Positions 6,508 to 14,122 of a DNA stretch of 64,000 nt are shown piece by piece. The DNA is from Qipengyuania sphaerica. Lineage in GTDB: Bacteria > Pseudomonadota > Alphaproteobacteria > Sphingomonadales > Sphingomonadaceae. The notes under the pieces are model-generated. The model worked only from the letters and a program-made list of their open reading frames with translations, did no database searches and had not been told where the DNA came from. A program made the translations under genes and the position numbers. Location: assembly GCF_019711595.1 (NCBI RefSeq), contig NZ_JAIGNR010000001.1, positions 496,001 through 560,000 on the forward strand, written 5' to 3'. Within the stretch, counting starts at the first letter, position 1, and each line of letters starts with the position of its first letter.

Positions 6508-8598
6508 CTAGAAGTCGCCGCTGAGCGAGAATGTGACGATCGGTCCGATCCGGCGATTCCTGTCTTCGATGAAGTCTATCTCGTCGCTCGGACGGGTTCC
6601 CGCATAGACCGTCCGGTAGAACTTGTTGCGCGCGCCCAGCACGTTGTTGACCCGCGCTGTGGCGGTGAGCCCGAACAAGTCTTTGTGCTCTGCAAAGAGA
6701 CCGAGGAAAACCGGACCTTCCCAGAACCTTCCGACTTCATAGCGGCGATAATAGGGGACTTGGTCGTTGGTGAAGATACTCGCGCCCCAGGCGTAGTCGG
6801 TATCCGGGACGTCGTGCCGGAAATTGCCTTCCAACCAACCTTCGACATCACCCGAATTGGCACGGGTCTCCCCGGTGAAGGGGTCGGTAAAGTACATGAA
6901 GCGTTCGACTGCCGTAAAATCGAGCCTCGCGCCCTTGAACCCCACGGGGTCGAAATTGATCGTGGCATCGACCTGCAACTGGAGCCGGTCGCCATCACCG
7001 ATGTTCCCGCGCGCTTCGCCGCCGTCCTCGGTCGGGACCCAATCGATGAAATCCTCGAACCAGGCCTGCAATGCGCTGAACTTTATCGATCCCCAGGGCC
7101 CCAGCCGTTTGTTAGCCACCAGCTCCAGGTTCCACGTCTGGTAGGGCACGAGATCGCTGTTGGAGCCCGATTGCTGGTCGTTATCGAGCTGGACGCTGCC
7201 GAGGAAGTCTCCGAATGTCAGCTGCCTGACCCGCCGTGCGAGTGTCAGCGATACGTCAAGATCGTCGCTCGGCTTCCACGTGCCGGCCAGTGAACCCTTG
7301 GGCCTGCGGAAACTACGCGAATTGGCATCCGATCCGGTCTGCTCGAGCTTGGAAAACTCCATCGCGCCGATCGCCTGCAGCGAAAGAGTGGACGACAATT
7401 CCTTCGAGACACTGAGGCTGCCCTCGTACCGGTCTTCAGTCACGCCGCCGGTACCGCCGGGAAAGGGAACGGGCACGAACGCGCCACTGCCGTCGAGGAC
7501 CGATAGCGCAGAGCGGCGATCAAGACGGTTAAACGCGGTTTCGCCGGCCACCTGCCAGTCGGAATCCAGCATGTTCCAGCCATATTCGAACCGTCCGATG
7601 CGCTCTCCGGTGGCGTCCACCTGGGTGAAATAGGACCCTTGATCGGGCGAGCCGTCGTCGAACGAGTCGACCAGCCTGAAGAAGAAATTGTCCCTCTCGA
7701 ACCGTTCCAGCCCGATGAGTTTGAGCCTGCCCGGGCCAAGGGCGAATTCCACATCGCCGCCGATCTCGTACTCGGGTCCGGTCCGCTTTTCCTTGGCGAG
7801 GCGGGTGCGCTGCGGCCCGCCCGCCGGCATACCGATTTCAGGGCGGTCGATATCGAGGAAATCCTCGCGATAGCTGAGGTTGAGATTGGCTATCGCGCCG
7901 CCGCCGAATGCATAACTGAAGTTGGTCGCCAGCCTGGGATTGTCATAAGCCCCGGACATCTTGGAGAACTGTTCTTCGAGCAGTTCGTCGTTGCCATCGG
8001 TGATGAGAGCGGGTCCATCTGCGCCGAAACGGTCGTTCGTATTGCTCAGCGCGACGGTGTAATCGAGCGCGCCGCTGCTGCCGGTGAGCGATACTTCGCC
8101 CCCGTATAATTGCGCTTCGGTATTATGGGGGCGGAAACCGGCGGTATACCGGAATTGGCCTGATGCGCCGCTGCTCTGGTAGACGACATTGGCTACCTGT
8201 CCGGTGAGGCCGGGAATATCGAGCGTGTTGCCGTCGATAATCTCGATGCGTGTCACGTCGCTTGCAGGGATGCGGCTGAGCTGATCGCGGACGCTGTCGG
8301 ACTTGCTCGAAAAGCGTGCGCCGTTGACGATGACATTCTGCGTGGCCTGGCCCAGACCGCGTTGTCCGTCATCATTGCCTCCTTCGATCGTGAAGCCGGG
8401 AATGCGCTCCACCATCTCCAGCGCATTGCGCGGAGCGAATTGGGCGAAATAGTCGGGTTCGAAGACGCGGGCGCCGGCCGTCACGGCTGGCGGTGCGGGA
8501 GGTTCGGACTGCGGGTCAGCCTCGTCCTGCGCAAGGACTGGACTGGTCGCACAGGCGACCATGGCAAGCGCGAAAAGGCTGGAAGTCGTTCTAAACAA
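6508..8598 (-). CDS. TonB-dependent outer-membrane receptor
   Basis: This 696-residue protein is a TonB-dependent receptor: a signal peptide ending near residue 23 (SPVLA-Q), a plug domain at about 55-150 (RNALEMVERIPGF, then DVTRIEIIDGNT), and a long beta-barrel rich in alternating aromatic residues that ends in Phe (FSLSGDF). I placed the start at TTG 8598. It directly precedes a good signal peptide and has GGAGAGA just upstream, whereas the only upstream ATG (8748) adds about 50 residues with no signal-like character. The substrate is unknown; no adjacent siderophore, B12 or sugar gene gives a clue. A TACA-TT-TGTA palindrome lies 33-42 bases upstream of the start. Confidence 0.9.
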   Translation of the reverse strand: MFRTTSSLFALAMVACATSPVLAQDEADPQSEPPAPPAVTAGARVFEPDYFAQFAPRNALEMVERIPGFTIEGGNDDGQRGLGQATQNVIVNGARFSSKSDSVRDQLSRIPASDVTRIEIIDGNTLDIPGLTGQVANVVYQSSGASGQFRYTAGFRPHNTEAQLYGGEVSLTGSSGALDYTVALSNTNDRFGADGPALITDGNDELLEEQFSKMSGAYDNPRLATNFSYAFGGGAIANLNLSYREDFLDIDRPEIGMPAGGPQRTRLAKEKRTGPEYEIGGDVEFALGPGRLKLIGLERFERDNFFFRLVDSFDDGSPDQGSYFTQVDATGERIGRFEYGWNMLDSDWQVAGETAFNRLDRRSALSVLDGSGAFVPVPFPGGTGGVTEDRYEGSLSVSKELSSTLSLQAIGAMEFSKLEQTGSDANSRSFRRPKGSLAGTWKPSDDLDVSLTLARRVRQLTFGDFLGSVQLDNDQQSGSNSDLVPYQTWNLELVANKRLGPWGSIKFSALQAWFEDFIDWVPTEDGGEARGNIGDGDRLQLQVDATINFDPVGFKGARLDFTAVERFMYFTDPFTGETRANSGDVEGWLEGNFRHDVPDTDYAWGASIFTNDQVPYYRRYEVGRFWEGPVFLGLFAEHKDLFGLTATARVNNVLGARNKFYRTVYAGTRPSDEIDFIEDRNRRIGPIVTFSLSGDF

Positions 8599-8953
8599 GG
8601 AGCTCTCTCCGGAAACTTTCCGGCTTCGTCTACATTTGTAGCCAAACGGCAAAGCGGGCGTCGATGAACGGCAATCCGATGCCGATGAAGAGCAAGTCCA
8701 ATCGATCAGCGTCGAGACGGGTTTCGTGTTAAAACCGGATCCCCCCACCTTTTGCGCGTGGTTAACGCTTCTCTTACCGCTTTGCGCATAGACCCTGAAT
8801 TGCGTCGCAGAGGGCTATGCCGCGCAAGCCGAAAAATCGGCGCGGCCTGCCCGAAATTACGCCACATCATGTCCGGGTCGCCGAGCGCCGCCAATCTACG
8901 CGCTGCGCAACGCTTCCCGCCTGTCCGAAGCTTCAAGCAAGCGAGAATGCCGC
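8599..8953. other. Divergent intergenic region, TonB receptor and chemoreceptor
   Basis: These 355 bases separate the divergently transcribed TonB receptor and chemoreceptor genes. They hold the receptor's ribosome binding site (8601-8610 on the minus strand) and the palindrome at 8630-8641. Short ORFs exist on both strands, but none has a convincing ribosome binding site or recognisable protein. I could not identify clear promoter boxes. Confidence 0.5.
8630..8641. promoter_or_regulatory. CTACA-TT-TGTAG palindrome, candidate operator
   Basis: The 12-base element has 5-bp inverted arms around TT and contains TACANNTGTA, the core operator form known for the CopY branch of BlaI/MecI/CopY repressors. 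It sits 33 bases upstream of the TonB receptor start codon, where a bound repressor could block transcription. No BlaI/CopY gene is in the window, so the regulator is unknown. Confidence 0.35.
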
Positions 8954-10672
8954 GTGTCCTTTTCCAGCGATTTCGATGCTCCCGCCGCGTCCGGTTTCAA
9001 GTCGGGCAAACGCTCGATCGCAGCCCAGATGAATGGCCTTTTCGCCTTTTGTGCCGCGGGCGTGGCGGTCTTGTGCCTTGTCGCGACGATAGGCTTCCAG
9101 CGGATTGAGCAACACGCGCAGGAACTCACCGGCATTACCGAGAGCGTGCTGCTGGTCTCGCGCACCAGCGCCAATGTCCATGCCTCGCAGGAGCGCTTGG
9201 GCAACTTCCTCGATGAGGGTAACCAGGCGCAGGATCTCGATACGGCAATCGACCTCGTCGACCAGGGCATGGAACACAACGCCCAGCTCGCTTCATATTA
9301 CCGTGAGCGAAACCCCGCCGGCCTCGAGGACGTGCAGGCGGTCGAGACCGAGTTGAAGGGCCTCAAGTCTTCGCTCCAGGCGCTCTACACCACGCCCCAA
9401 GACCAGATTTATGGTGCGGTCATACCGGCATTCAAACATGGCTATGCCGTCGGCGAAATTTCCAACGGTCTGCGCAATCGCGCCGAGGTCGACCTCTATC
9501 GGGTAAATCGCGCAGAGCAGGCCGCCATCGAGCTTTTCACGCTGGTGATGATTCTTCTGGGCATCGCCTCGCTGGTCACCGTATTCCTCGGCCGTAAGGT
9601 CATGGCGCGCCGCGTCGTGGCACCGATCCGCAATATCGGCGAGACCAGCGCGCTGCTCGCCGAGGGCGCAAGCGATCTCGAAATTCCCGAAATCCACCGC
9701 GAGGATGAAATCGGCGAGATGGCGCGGGCGCTCGAAAGCCTGCGCCTGATCCAGGAAGAAGCGCGCGCCAAGGCCGCTTCGGAACTCGAAGACCAAGTCG
9801 CCTCGGCCGAAGAACGCAACCGCAAGGTGGCGGTCATCCAGGACCTTGCCGATGCCTTCGAGCGCATGGTCAGCGGTGTCGCGCATGATGTCGCCGCCGC
9901 CAGCGGGCAACTCAAAGATGCGGCGCGCACCATGTCGGACAATGCCGAACAGTCCTCGCAGCGCGTGCTCAATGCCTCGCGCCTGCTTGCCGAAACGAGC
10001 GAAGGCGTGACGGGAGCCGCGGCGGCATCGGACGAATTCGTGATGTCGATCGGCGAAATCAGCCGCCAGGCCGCCTCCAGTGCAGAGCGCGCCGGGCAGG
10101 CCAATCATGCGGCGCATGATGCCGACCGCACGATCGGCGAACTCGACGCGATGGCGATCCATGTCGGCCAAGTGGTCGAACTGATCGGCCAGATCGCCCA
10201 GCGCACCAACCTCCTTGCACTCAATGCCAGCATCGAAGCGGCGCGCGGTGGCGAAGCAGGGCGCGGCTTTGCCGTGGTGGCTAGCGAAGTGAAGGAACTC
10301 GCTGCGCAGACCGCGCGTGCGACCGAGGAAGTCGAAGCGCAGATCAAGCAGATTCAGGCCTCGTCCTCGGCCAGCGCCGGTGCGCTGCGCAAGATTACCG
10401 AGGAAGTCGGCCAGTTGGGAGTCACCTCGACCTCGATCGCTGCGGCGGTCGACCAGCAGGCCGTCGCCGGGCAGGAACTGGCGCGCAGTATCGATGCAGC
10501 CGCGCGCAACACGGAAGCCGTGAGCGGCGACATGGACGAAGTCAGCCGGATGTCGATGGCGACCGGTGCTGCGGCAAGCCAGGTCCTTACCGGCTGCACC
10601 TCGCTCGAACAGCAGGCTGAAGTGCTCCGTGCGCAGGTCGCCGATTTCCTCGAGCATGTCCGAGCTGCCTGA
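8954..10672 (+). CDS. Methyl-accepting chemotaxis protein
   Basis: This 572-residue chemoreceptor has a first membrane segment at about residues 26-48, a periplasmic domain of roughly 140 residues predicted to be helical, a second membrane segment near 190-212, a HAMP domain (to about 265), and a long cytoplasmic coiled coil. The coil contains the conserved hairpin tip ([20 protein letters not shown], then [13 protein letters not shown]). It should signal to CheA through CheW. The start is GTG with only a weak ribosome binding site. No che or flagellar genes are in the window, so the receptor is an orphan here. The ligand is unknown, and no CheR-tethering pentapeptide is present at the C-terminus. 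Confidence 0.93.
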
Positions 10673-10734
10673 TTTCGCGGGGAAAAATCACGCGAAACCT
10701 TGCGCAGCGATGAACGTATCCCGACATTAGGCGC

Positions 10735-11883
10735 ATGGTATATATCACCGCATCGGGCCAGTTCCTTCCCGGAGAGCCCGTCGATAACGAGGCCATGGGC
10801 GACCATATCGGGCGTCTCTCTCCTCAAGCGGAGCGGATGGGCCGGCTGGTCCTTCGCCAGAACCGCATCGGTACTCGCCACTATGCGATGAAGCCGGACG
10901 GGACGACCGACTGGACCATTGCCAGGATGCTCGGCGAAGCGGTGCGTTCGACGCTCGACGATGCCGAAATCGATGCGAAGCAGGTGGGCTATCTCGCCAC
11001 TTCCACCACGCAGAACGACCTGATGGTTCCGGGCCTCGCGAGCCAGGTGCATGGCGAGCTGGGCCTGCCGCCGCTCGAGCTCGCGAGCATGCAGTCGGTC
11101 TGCGCCAGCTCGATGATGGCGCTGAAGAGCGCTTACCTCCAAGTGAAGTCGGGCGAGCACCGCGCGGCGCTGGTCGGCGGGGGCGAGTTTGCCAGCCGCT
11201 ATTTCCGCCCCGGTTTCTATGAGGGGACCGACAGCATCCTCGAAGACGGGGCGCTACCGAGCGATGCGGGCTTCCTGCGCTGGACGCTGAGCGACGGGGC
11301 GGCCGCAGTGCTGCTGGAAGATCGCCCGGCGAGCCGCGGCCTGTCGCTGCGGATCGATTGGGTCAGCCTGCGCAGTTTTGCGGACCGCTTCGAGCCGTGC
11401 ATGACCGCCGGTTCGGTGCGGGACGGGGATGGCGCGCTCACCCCGTGGTCGCACCACGCCGGCATTCGGGCCGCTGCGCAATCGGGTGCCTTCCAGCTGC
11501 GGCAGGATGTCGATGCGCTCTACCGGATGCTGCCTGTCTGGCTGGGCGAATTTATGCGGCTGGTCGACGAGGGACTGATCGAGCCCGACACTGTCGACTG
11601 GTTCGCCATCCACTATTCCGCCCATTCGCTGCGCGAGGAGATGATCCGGCAGGCGACCAAGGCGGGCTGCATGATCCCCGAGGAACGGTGGTATTCGAAC
11701 CTTGCGACCAAGGGGAATGTCGGCGCGGCCTCGATTTTCCTCATCCTCGACGACCTGCTGAAAGGCGGGACACTGGAAGAAGGGCAGACAGTGCTTTGCG
11801 CCGTGCCCGAAAGCGGGCAATGTGTGATGGCCTATGCCGGGATGACCGTGGTCGGCCCTGATGACAGGAGGGACGCGAAATGA
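10735..11883 (+). CDS. KAS III-like beta-ketoacyl synthase (StlD/DarB-like)
   Basis: This 382-residue thiolase-fold enzyme has the KAS III catalytic triad: Cys123 in QSVCASS, His293 in AIHYSAHS and Asn328 in TKGNVGAAS. It is longer than housekeeping FabH (about 317 residues) and resembles the StlD/DarB group, which condenses beta-ketoacyl thioesters with other acyl units. Expected chemistry is a decarboxylative or non-decarboxylative Claisen condensation of acyl-CoA or acyl-ACP; the substrate is not known. It is the first gene of a tightly overlapping trio (ATGA overlap with the next gene). No acyl carrier protein or aromatase is adjacent. KAS III fold is certain from the motifs; StlD/DarB subgrouping is my recognition. 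Confidence 0.85.
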   Translation: MVYITASGQFLPGEPVDNEAMGDHIGRLSPQAERMGRLVLRQNRIGTRHYAMKPDGTTDWTIARMLGEAVRSTLDDAEIDAKQVGYLATSTTQNDLMVPGLASQVHGELGLPPLELASMQSVCASSMMALKSAYLQVKSGEHRAALVGGGEFASRYFRPGFYEGTDSILEDGALPSDAGFLRWTLSDGAAAVLLEDRPASRGLSLRIDWVSLRSFADRFEPCMTAGSVRDGDGALTPWSHHAGIRAAAQSGAFQLRQDVDALYRMLPVWLGEFMRLVDEGLIEPDTVDWFAIHYSAHSLREEMIRQATKAGCMIPEERWYSNLATKGNVGAASIFLILDDLLKGGTLEEGQTVLCAVPESGQCVMAYAGMTVVGPDDRRDAK

Positions 11884-12569
11884 ACGCAGAAGCAGGACGG
11901 CCCGATGCGCCGCTCGCCAGGACGCACCGCCAGCTGGCGCAGGTGTGGATCGACTTCGAAAGCGCGCTGATGACCGTGCCGCTTGTGTCCCGGCTCCATG
12001 CGGGCAAGTGGCGGGTCGAGGATTACCAGGCGCTGCTGCGCAACCTGCGCCAGCAGGTGATCGAAGGCAGCCGCTGGATCGCGCGCGCCTCCTCCAGCCT
12101 CACCCCGGCGCATGAAGATTTGCGCAGCATGTTCCTGCACCATGCGCAGGAAGAACACCGCGATTTCCGGATGCTTGAGGATTGCTACGTCGCGGTCGGC
12201 GGCTCGCGCAAGGAAATCCAGAACGCCCCCAAAAACGTCGGTTCGGAAGCGCTCTCGGCTTTCATGTACCACGCTGCCTCAAAGCCCGACCCGGTTGGTC
12301 TGCTTGGCGCGATGTTCATCATCGAGGGGCTGGGCAACCGGATCGCCGGGCCGTGGTCGGAACTCATCCAGAAACAGCTCGACCTGCCCGACGAGGCGGT
12401 GAGGTTCTTCAAGTATCACTCGGTCAACGACAGCCACCATCTCGAAGAATTCGACGAGGCGATGGAAATGGCGGTCACCAGCGAAGAGGTTGGGACCGAT
12501 ATCGTGCGCCACGCAAAAATCGTCGCGCGTCTCTATCGCCTGCAGCTGGAAGAAATCGACAATGTCTGA
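11880..12569 (+). CDS. Iron-containing redox enzyme (heme-oxygenase-like fold)
   Basis: This 229-residue all-helical protein resembles the iron-containing redox enzyme or TenA/heme-oxygenase-like family, whose members include diiron oxidases such as the alkene-forming UndA. Possible metal ligands cluster in EEHRD (residues 91-95), the Glu of FIIEGLG (149), and DSHHLEEF (184-191). It starts at an ATG that overlaps the ketosynthase stop (ATGA) and overlaps the next gene by eight bases, so the three proteins are translationally coupled. Plausible role: oxidative tailoring of the ketosynthase product. The fold assignment is reasonably firm; the reaction and metal content are inference. Confidence 0.8.
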   Translation: MNAEAGRPDAPLARTHRQLAQVWIDFESALMTVPLVSRLHAGKWRVEDYQALLRNLRQQVIEGSRWIARASSSLTPAHEDLRSMFLHHAQEEHRDFRMLEDCYVAVGGSRKEIQNAPKNVGSEALSAFMYHAASKPDPVGLLGAMFIIEGLGNRIAGPWSELIQKQLDLPDEAVRFFKYHSVNDSHHLEEFDEAMEMAVTSEEVGTDIVRHAKIVARLYRLQLEEIDNV

Positions 12570-13494
12570 TGCGCGCCCCCATCCGGGCACGGCGCATGAC
12601 GAGCCGATCGTCCATGCCTTCGGCGTGCACGATCCCGCCGATCCGGACCCGTGGGCGGCACTGGCGATGGACCGCTCGCTGCCTTTCGACCCGGCCGCCA
12701 AGGCTGCGCTGCTTCGCGACCAGCGTTCGCCCAGCCGCCAGTTCCTGCTGCCCCTCGTGCGTCCGCTCGCGCGGCTGACGATCATCCTTGCGCAGGTGTT
12801 CAAATCGATCTTCCCGCGCTTCCCGCACGCGCCGAAATTCCTTCACTGGATGATCGCGACTGGCATGAAGCGATTCCTGACGCCCGATGCCAACTGGCTG
12901 ATCCTGCGGCATTTCCACCTCGGCTCGCAGATCCTGCGCTTCATTGCCGACAATGTGACGCCCGGTTTCCGCCCCGTGCTCGAACCGATGGATCCGAAGA
13001 ATGTCGACGGCGTGCGCGACAATCTTTTCCTCAAGCACGATCTGAACATCTACAACTTTCTGATCCAGCTTAATCACGAGATGGATAGGCGCGGGGTGAC
13101 GTTGCAAAAGGCGGAACGCCTCGATTTCAGCGCGATCGATCCCGATGCGGTGAAGATTGAGGAAATGCCCAAGGGCCGCCTCAACAAGATCGACCTGCAG
13201 ACTGCGATCGAGATGTACACGCCGGCCTATGCCTTCTGGTTGACCGATCGCGATTTCTGGCGAGCGGCCAATTCGCTGCAGCTGGACGAGACGATCGGGC
13301 TCTATTGTGCGCGGCTGACGGGCGAGGAAAAGCATCTCGCCATGGTCACCAACGCGCATCCGCTGGTGCCCGAAAGTACATTGAAAGCGGGTTTCCGCCT
13401 CATGCTCCACGGCCTTTCGACCGAGGTGCTTCACGGTTTCCTGGTGGAGCTGAAGCAGCGGCAGGCGGCAGCCGCAGCCGCCGCCCCGGCCTGA
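12562..13494 (+). CDS. Unrecognised conserved protein of the ketosynthase cassette
   Basis: This 310-residue protein starts at an ATG inside the end of the iron-enzyme gene, with GGAAGAAA upstream. I do not recognise a characterised family. It is predominantly helical. Visible features are an amphipathic or hydrophobic stretch near residues 55-80 ([20 protein letters not shown]), histidine-bearing segments [12 protein letters not shown] and [10 protein letters not shown] followed by LNHEM that could bind a metal or cofactor, and an Ala-rich C-terminus. No signal peptide or obvious membrane anchor is present. Gene coupling suggests it works with the ketosynthase and the iron enzyme. Confidence 0.8.
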
Positions 13495-13498
13495 GGGC

Positions 13499-14122
13499 TT
13501 AGAACTTTACCTCGCTCGCGTGGCTGATGACATTGCCGAGGATGCCGTATTCCTTGGCTTCCTTGGTATCCATCCAGAAATCGCGGTCGATGTCCTTGAG
13601 GACCTTTTCGTAGGTCTGGCCGGTCGCATCGGCGATCTTGCGCGCGATGCGCTCGCGCATCTTGACGATTTCCTGCGCCTGGATGGCGATGTCGCTGGCC
13701 TTGCCGCCCGCACCGCCCGAGGGCTGGTGGATCAGGAAGCGCGTGTTCGGCAGGCAGAAGCGACGCTCATGCGGGACCGAGAGGAAGATATGGGTCGCGA
13801 TGCTGGCCACCCAGCCGGTGCCGATGATGGCGACGGGCGAGGAGATGTAGCCGATAAGATCGTGGATCGTATCGCCCGATTCGACATGGCCGCCCGGCGA
13901 ATTGACGATCAGCTTGATCGGCTCGTTCGAGATGTGGTCGAGATAGAGCAGCTGCATCGAGATACGCTCGGCCAGTTTCTGGTCGACGCCGCCGAACAGC
14001 ATCACGGTGCGCGCTTCGAGAAACTTGCTCATCATTGCGGCGCGCAGGCCGTCGCCCTTGTTTTCGTCGTCATCCTCGTCGGCGCGGAACGGTGCAATTG
14101 GGGAGAACGGCGAAGACGACAT
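13499..14122 (-). CDS. ClpP-family protease, divergent paralogue
   Basis: This 207-residue protein is a ClpP-type serine protease subunit distinct from the canonical ClpP encoded divergently at 14258. The triad is intact: Ser107 in GWVASIAT, His132 in FLIHQPSGG and Asp181 in IDRDFW. The oxyanion glycines (NSPGG, 75-79) are present. The N-terminus is acidic ([11 protein letters not shown]), and the Ser region differs from the usual GQAASMG. Such second ClpPs occur in many alphaproteobacteria and may form homo- or hetero-oligomeric rings; whether ClpX or ClpA serves this one is unknown. The 135-base divergent region should hold both promoters. Confidence 0.92.

What the first reader, a model, noticed from the sequence alone, without database searches (positions are those of the whole stretch)
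10735..13494. Coupled KAS III, iron-oxygenase-fold and unknown protein cassette
Three genes overlap end to end (ATGA, then eight bases): a ketosynthase with an intact Cys123/His293/Asn328 triad that is longer than housekeeping FabH, a heme-oxygenase-fold protein with His/Glu/Asp clusters, and a helical protein I cannot place. Seen directly: the overlaps and motifs. Known: StlD/DarB-type ketosynthases make resorcinol or related acyl products, and some heme-oxygenase-fold diiron enzymes oxidise fatty acids (UndA). Inference: a small biosynthetic unit making an oxidised lipid-derived metabolite, without an obvious carrier protein, cyclase or transporter. This is my best candidate for an undescribed system in the window.
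Basis: partly seen in the sequence, partly recalled or inferred. Interest (0 to 1): 0.62.

Follow-up and report, generated by a model that had tools for sequence, protein, structure and literature searches.

The report
Ketosynthase, oxidase-fold and DUF6999 cassette
Three neighbouring genes form a little-studied cassette found in distantly related bacteria; in many of them a carbon-joining enzyme and an iron-oxidase-like protein are fused into one, probably to build and then oxidise a fatty-acid-derived product.

Summary
KAS (10735-11883), a heme-oxygenase-fold protein (HO, 11880-12569) and a third gene (12562-13494, Pfam DUF6999) overlap as described. The trio is a real unit: of 80 named-genome loci fetched (best 80 of 485), 80 have HO beside DUF6999 and 79 KAS beside HO; in the other, KAS lies about 8 kb upstream on the same contig. 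KAS and HO are one open reading frame in 66 of 88 loci. In Burkholderiales and Cellvibrio a fatty-acid hydroxylase and desaturase lie directly upstream (37 of 38 named loci). HO has a confident model and seven invariant His/Glu/Asp residues (90 of 90 rows), but the helix position that is His in its relatives read here is Asp. KAS resembles StlD/DarB but scores below the curated cut-off, and a DarA-like aromatase candidate is missing from 16 of 18 trio genomes, so a 'resorcinol' label is doubtful. DUF6999 has no detected fold relative in the PDB. Best reading: a ketosynthase hands its product to a tethered dimetal oxidase; product, metal and chemistry are unknown. The cassette is sparse (9 of 398 genomes in a phylum sample). 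New variant of a known kind.

The parts
10735..11883 (+). Ketosynthase of KAS III type, distant relative of StlD/DarB; C123/H293/N328
11880..12569 (+). Heme-oxygenase-fold protein (PF14518); candidate metal-site residues H88, E92, D95, E149, H180, D184, H187; overlaps KAS by 4 bases
12562..13494 (+). DUF6999 protein (PF22523), mainly helical; invariant polar residues include H117, H159, D160, D242, H283, E288; overlaps HO by 8 bases
8954..10672 (+). Methyl-accepting chemotaxis protein gene directly upstream (context, not claimed as part of the pathway)
13499..14122 (-). Second, divergent Clp protease gene downstream (context only); not beside the trio in L020

Best explanation
A small biosynthetic module. 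The KAS III-type ketosynthase joins a fatty acyl thioester to a second acyl unit through Cys123/His293/Asn328. The heme-oxygenase-fold protein, fused to the ketosynthase in most loci seen and translationally coupled to it here, binds a dimetal (probably diiron) site and uses O2 to oxidise or cleave the ketosynthase product. DUF6999, the next gene, is a third regular part; a lipid-facing partner or further enzyme is a guess. In Burkholderiales and Cellvibrio a fatty-acid hydroxylase and desaturase modify the chain as well. Shown: gene order, fusion, co-occurrence, fold of HO, conserved residues, lipid-gene neighbours. Inferred: substrate class, metal, O2 use, order of steps, role of DUF6999. 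The product is unknown.
For: 80 of 80 named loci (best 80 of 485 hits to DUF6999) have HO beside DUF6999 and 79 of 80 have KAS beside HO; in L024 the one KAS match is on the same-length contig about 8 kb upstream. KAS and HO are one ORF in 66 of 88 loci (L018 and L038 are one place counted twice). In a 398-genome phylum sample the 9 genomes with DUF6999 are the 9 with the close HO subfamily (E below 1e-85; next hit 2e-27; the profile was built from trio HO proteins). HO model pLDDT 93.8; PDB neighbours 3dde Z 27.8, CtCADD 24.1, HrmI 21.6, UndA 19.9. Seven residues invariant in 90 of 90 rows. KAS aligns end to end with StlD. FA hydroxylase and desaturase upstream in 37 of 38 Burkholderiales/Cellvibrio named loci. 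An acyltransferase/AMP-binding/MFS protein directly downstream in 5 of 20 sphingomonad-type loci.
Against: No product, metal or activity is known. The position that is His in 3dde and in three sister proteins is Asp in 90 of 90 rows, so the site may be mononuclear or not redox active. In the 22 Paenibacillaceae-type loci the hydroxylase was found in 2 and the desaturase in none, and neither in the 20 sphingomonad-type loci, so they are not core. No carrier protein was noticed beside the trio, but none was searched for. The same fold serves PqqC and TenA, which need no metal (passages of PMC11363339) and match nearly as well (Z 21.5 and 21.4).
Confidence: 0.6

Rival explanations
1. Canonical dialkylresorcinol pathway: KAS acts as DarB/StlD, a DarA-type aromatase elsewhere completes the ring, and HO and DUF6999 only decorate the product.
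For: KAS is closest to StlD/DarB models and to StlD structures. Achromobacter genomes are reported with an antiSMASH 'resorcinol' cluster (passages of PMC9045304 and PMC9168490), in the first with core gene DarB, and A. xylosoxidans B_1 (G438) has a single such ketosynthase at E 1e-30, the trio's.
Against: The DarA candidate is missing from 16 of 18 trio genomes; the two that have it carry a separate DarB-like protein at 585-587 bits, against 302-430 for the 18 trio ketosynthases, cut-off 450. Caveats: DarA was named by its place only, and that DarB-like protein is itself below the stricter DarB model (463.8 vs 550 bits).
Confidence: 0.1
2. A special case of the best explanation: HO replaces DarA and oxidises a KAS-made cyclohexanedione to an alkylresorcinol, hydroxyquinol or quinone.
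For: A StlD/DarB-like KAS mostly without the DarA candidate, tethered to an oxidase-fold protein; lipid-modifying genes upstream in Burkholderiales/Cellvibrio.
Against: Nothing shows that this KAS cyclises. The HDO reaction types named in the passages read are C-C cleavage, N-oxygenation, rearrangement and radical transfer, not ring aromatisation (PMC13108848).
Confidence: 0.22
3. Another special case: UndA-like. KAS makes a beta-keto acid and HO cleaves a C-C bond, giving an olefin, ketone or aldehyde.
For: UndA (Z 19.9) cleaves C-C bonds of fatty acids (passages of PMC13108848).
Against: The conserved residues differ from those of 3dde and three sister proteins on the first core helix; identity to UndA is 15%.
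Confidence: 0.22
4. HO is not a metal oxidase: it works like PqqC or TenA without metal, or only holds the ketosynthase product.
For: PqqC (Z 21.5) and TenA (Z 21.4) match almost as well as HDOs, and the residue pattern is altered.
Against: H88, E92, D95, E149, H180, D184 and H187 are invariant in 90 of 90 rows, and the Glu, His, Asp, His of the second and third core helices follow the published motif.
Confidence: 0.12

Closest known systems
StlD / DarB ketosynthases
   Same: KAS III family; full-length alignment to StlD; Cys/His/Asn triad kept
   Different: Below the curated cut-offs of PRK06816 (332 vs 450 bits) and DarB (300 vs 550); DarA candidate missing from 16 of 18 trio genomes; fused or coupled to an HO-fold protein
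Heme-oxygenase-like dimetal oxidases/oxygenases (HDO: UndA, CADD, HrmI, FlcD)
   Same: Fold; Glu on the second core helix and His-Asp-His on the third, as in the motif given in passages of PMC11363339
   Different: On the first core helix the conserved order is H88-E92-D95, not Glu-His; linked to a ketosynthase
Sden_3740 (PDB 3dde), uncharacterised
   Same: Closest solved structure to HO: Z 27.8, rmsd 1.7 over 217 residues, 20% identity; profile E 2.8e-13; also has His at position 88
   Different: His where the trio proteins have Asp95; its gene neighbours were not examined
DUF6999 (PF22523)
   Same: 393.7 bits over the whole domain
   Different: No function is given for the family; 0 papers hold the word in the library searched
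antiSMASH 'resorcinol' clusters of Achromobacter
   Same: Probably this locus: A. xylosoxidans B_1 has only the trio's StlD/DarB-like ketosynthase at E 1e-30; not checked by locus tag
   Different: The DarA candidate was not found in that genome

Membership tests
PF14518 Haem_oxygenas_2 | Score above the Pfam cut-off | tested here: met
   50.1 vs 28.9 bits
HDO superfamily | Heme-oxygenase-like helical fold | tested here: met
   pLDDT 93.8; Z 24.1 to CtCADD, 21.6 to HrmI, 19.9 to UndA. PqqC and TenA share the fold
HDO superfamily | Metal motif E-H-E-H-(D/E)-H in that order | tested here: not met
   By sequence only: no conserved His follows E92 on the first core helix; position 95 is Asp in 90 of 90 rows (motif from passages of PMC11363339). 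Position 93 is His in 35 of 49 rows of A4 and Gln in 14. H88 could serve as the ligand; geometry not measured. Filed as HDO-like, not as a member
HDO superfamily | Dinuclear metal and O2 activation | not testable with these tools
   needs purified protein
StlD/DarB ketosynthases | Curated subfamily cut-off (PRK06816) | tested here: not met
   332 vs 450 bits; trio ketosynthases of 18 genomes 302-430
StlD/DarB ketosynthases | Catalytic Cys-His-Asn triad | tested here: met
   C 88 of 89, H and N 89 of 89 rows
Dialkylresorcinol (dar) pathway | DarA aromatase in the genome | tested here: not met
   No match in G000 or in 15 others of 18 trio genomes at E 0.001 (16 of 18 in all). The query was taken as DarA from its place next to DarB, as in the Azoarcus locus; it matches no NCBIfam or Pfam model
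Dialkylresorcinol (dar) pathway | Dedicated carrier protein (DarC) | not tested
   no search was made
DUF6999 (PF22523) | Score above the Pfam cut-off | tested here: met
   393.7 vs 27 bits

The most novel reading that the evidence does not exclude
A new lipid-building logic: a ketosynthase wired to a dimetal oxygenase with a rearranged ligand set (His and carboxylate exchanged on the first core helix) that oxidises the carbon-carbon product in place, plus DUF6999 as a second helical metal enzyme of a new fold (three invariant His and several invariant carboxylates on different helices), making a class of membrane or signal lipid shared by proteobacteria and Paenibacillaceae.
Probability: 0.25. 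Interest if true: 0.85.

Novelty: new variant of a known kind. Interest (0 to 1): 0.62.

Why it matters
The cassette is sparse (9 of 398 genomes in a phylum sample; 3 of 120 in the family of G417) but crosses phyla, with 485 hits in one scan of species-level genomes. No description was found in the searches made. It would add a ketosynthase-fused HDO-like enzyme with an altered conserved site, help give DUF6999 a function, and probably correct an Achromobacter cluster now labelled 'resorcinol' that was reported as induced early in plants (passage of PMC9168490). It may be testable in a laboratory strain: the control genome of Caulobacter vibrioides rings for DUF6999 and for a StlD/DarB-like ketosynthase; whether they are neighbours there was not seen.

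Tried and rejected
Rejected: ordinary FabH (FabH-type models 58.9 and 78.2 bits, cut-offs 292 and 249). Rejected as the main reading: canonical dialkylresorcinol pathway (with the caveat on how DarA was named). Little help: viral contigs (no relative found; a single-protein query finds close relatives only) and plasmids (one record, 28% identity, on an 801-kb Pseudoalteromonas replicon).

Led nowhere: DUF6999 fold search: no PDB match with Foldseek E at or below 0.001, best VIA-align Z 4.0, mostly GPCR rows; a missing match does not prove a new fold. Order of fusion and splitting: the split gamma sequences group with the fused Beta/Gamma ones in the KAS tree (support 0.98) but with the split alphas in the HO tree (0.99), so no direction is claimed. 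Paper searches listed nothing. Ligand residue numbers were sought in PMC11965152 and not found; PMC11278768 was looked at and gave nothing used. DUF6999 hydropathy: best 19-residue mean 1.59, within residues 61-80, too weak to call it a membrane protein. NF035922 was recalled as the DarA model and is not; that search is discarded. The stretch between KAS and the rest in L024 was listed as ORFs but not identified.

Full report
What is there. Three genes on the + strand, 10735-11883, 11880-12569 and 12562-13494, overlap by 4 and 8 bases. Pfam names them a KAS III-type ketosynthase, PF14518 'iron-containing redox enzyme' of heme-oxygenase fold, and PF22523 DUF6999.

The trio is a real unit. One scan of named genomes with a DUF6999 alignment found 485 encoding stretches; the best 80 were kept. 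HO sits directly upstream of DUF6999 in 80 of 80, KAS upstream of HO in 79 of 80. In the exception, L024 (Novosphingobium profundi), the one KAS match lies on the contig of the same length, about 8 kb upstream (distance computed from contig coordinates). The 80 come from sphingomonads and one Roseiarcaceae genome, Burkholderiales, Cellvibrio and Paenibacillaceae, and are the best hits to a query headed by the window protein, so not a random sample. Nine further loci (eight genomes of a phylum sample, one Pseudoalteromonas plasmid) have the same order. Of these 89 loci L018 and L038 are one place.

Independent co-occurrence. In a 398-genome phylum sample 9 genomes have DUF6999. The HO profile, built from trio proteins, hits 85 of 398 in two tiers: 9 genomes at E below 1e-85, the other 76 from 2e-27. 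The nine of the first tier are the nine with DUF6999. The trio is patchy: DUF6999 is in 0 of 24 other same-genus genomes and 3 of 120 in the family of G417.

Fusion. A script asked whether the KAS and HO matches share a frame without a stop between them. Of 88 loci with both, 66 are fused and 22 split. All 60 named loci L040-L099 are fused. Split are the 19 testable loci of L020-L039 (sphingomonads, L036 Roseiarcaceae, L039 titled Bacillus), L011, L018 and L019, and the window. Trees of the three proteins agree on the main groups but not on the deep order, so it is open whether fusion or split came first.

Neighbours. A fatty-acid hydroxylase (PF04116) and desaturase (PF00487) were named by Pfam in L042 and L087. 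By tblastn (E 1e-8) both lie upstream of KAS in 37 of 38 named Burkholderiales and Cellvibrio loci; in the other, L040, the contig ends 136 bases before the KAS match. In 22 Paenibacillaceae-type loci the hydroxylase is found in 2 and the desaturase in none. Of the 20 loci L020-L039, 10 have a TetR-family gene in the fetched stretch and 5 a protein with MFS, acyltransferase and AMP-binding domains directly downstream; that this is LplT-Aas is recalled. L011 and L019 have a 185-aa His-rich protein upstream without a Pfam or NCBIfam match in L011. None of these was noticed beside the trio in the window's ORF list; the loci were not scanned gene by gene.

The HO protein. AlphaFold2 gives pLDDT 93.8. 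VIA-align puts 3dde (Sden_3740) first, Z 27.8, then 1rcw (CT610; that this is CADD is recalled) 24.9, CtCADD 24.1, HrmI 21.6, PqqC 21.5, TenA 21.4; UndA has 19.9. Passages of PMC11363339 give the known motif as E-H-E-H-(D/E)-H on three core helices. E149, H180, D184 and H187 fit the last four. On the first helix the trio has H88, E92 and D95. All seven are invariant in 90 of 90 rows (window and 89 loci); position 62 is Glu or Asp in all. At position 95 there is His in 3dde and in the three sister proteins read, out of 76 sister hits; position 88 is Tyr in those three but His in 3dde. E92 as ligand, and H88 standing in for the missing His, are inference.

The ketosynthase. It aligns over its full length with StlD and keeps the triad. 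It is below the StlD/DarB cut-off (332 vs 450); five other trio ketosynthases (three as fusions) score 322-428. Of 18 trio genomes two carry a second such ketosynthase at 585-587 bits and 16 only one, at E 1e-30 or better. The second protein of G417 passes the StlD/DarB model but not the stricter DarB one (463.8 vs 550). Beside it lies a 348-aa protein taken as DarA from its place, as in the Azoarcus dar locus (passages of PMC3949708); no NCBIfam or Pfam model names it. It occurs in only those two of 18 genomes.

DUF6999. pLDDT 88.1, mainly helical; no Foldseek match at E 0.001 or below, best VIA-align Z 4.0. Thirteen polar residues were counted and all are invariant in 90 of 90 rows; H117, H159, D160, D242, H283 and E288 lie on four different helices. 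A metal site is possible but untested.

How it came here. In 12 of 13 same-genus loci read, a gene like window 6508-8748 (TonB plug domain) sits directly before clpP1; in the 13th the Na/H exchanger gene does. In the window 5.2 kb (MCP, trio, second Clp protease) lie between them. L020 (Qipengyuania polymorpha, trio proteins 92-95% identical) aligns through MCP and trio at the same place but has about 100 bases where the second clpP would be. So the block was gained, or lost by the others.

Literature. Searches for DUF6999 and for HDO or iron-redox terms with ketosynthase, desaturase or fusion terms listed 0 papers. Passages of PMC9045304 report an antiSMASH 'resorcinol' cluster with core gene DarB in Achromobacter mucicolens; a passage of PMC9168490 one induced early in plants in A. 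xylosoxidans. A. xylosoxidans B_1 (G438) has only the trio's ketosynthase, so that cluster is probably this locus; strains differ and locus tags were not checked.

Verdict. A conserved, apparently undescribed module: a ketosynthase wired to an oxidase-fold protein with an altered conserved site, plus DUF6999. The parts belong to known families; the combination is new as far as these searches show. The chemistry is not known. The rivals with a dar-like ring or UndA-like cleavage are special cases of the best explanation, so their odds overlap with it.

Noticed in passing
window 8954-14122: MCP gene, trio and a second clpP lie between a TonB-plug-domain gene and clpP1; in 12 of 13 same-genus loci read the two flanking genes are adjacent.
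   Followed up: partly
window 13499-14122: Second Clp protease, 37-39% identical to clpP1 of relatives in the rows; no match at E 1e-60 in 14 other same-genus genomes and not beside the trio in L020.
   Followed up: partly
L021: Pontixanthobacter luteolus has the trio in the same region but beside the Na/H exchanger gene, not at the clpP1 site.
   Followed up: no
L039: Record titled Bacillus sp. 2B10 groups within sphingomonads in the three trees and is probably mislabelled or contaminated.
   Followed up: no
L011:7618-8175, L019: 185-aa His-rich protein upstream of the split gamma trios; no Pfam or NCBIfam match for the L011 copy.
   Followed up: partly
L110 and other second-tier hits: Several sister HO proteins lie in open frames of 640-772 aa, perhaps other fusions; not examined.
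   Followed up: no
G417, G442: Two genomes carry both a dar-like locus (DarA candidate and DarB-like; DarH-like and ABC transporter scanned in G417 only) and the trio.
   Followed up: partly
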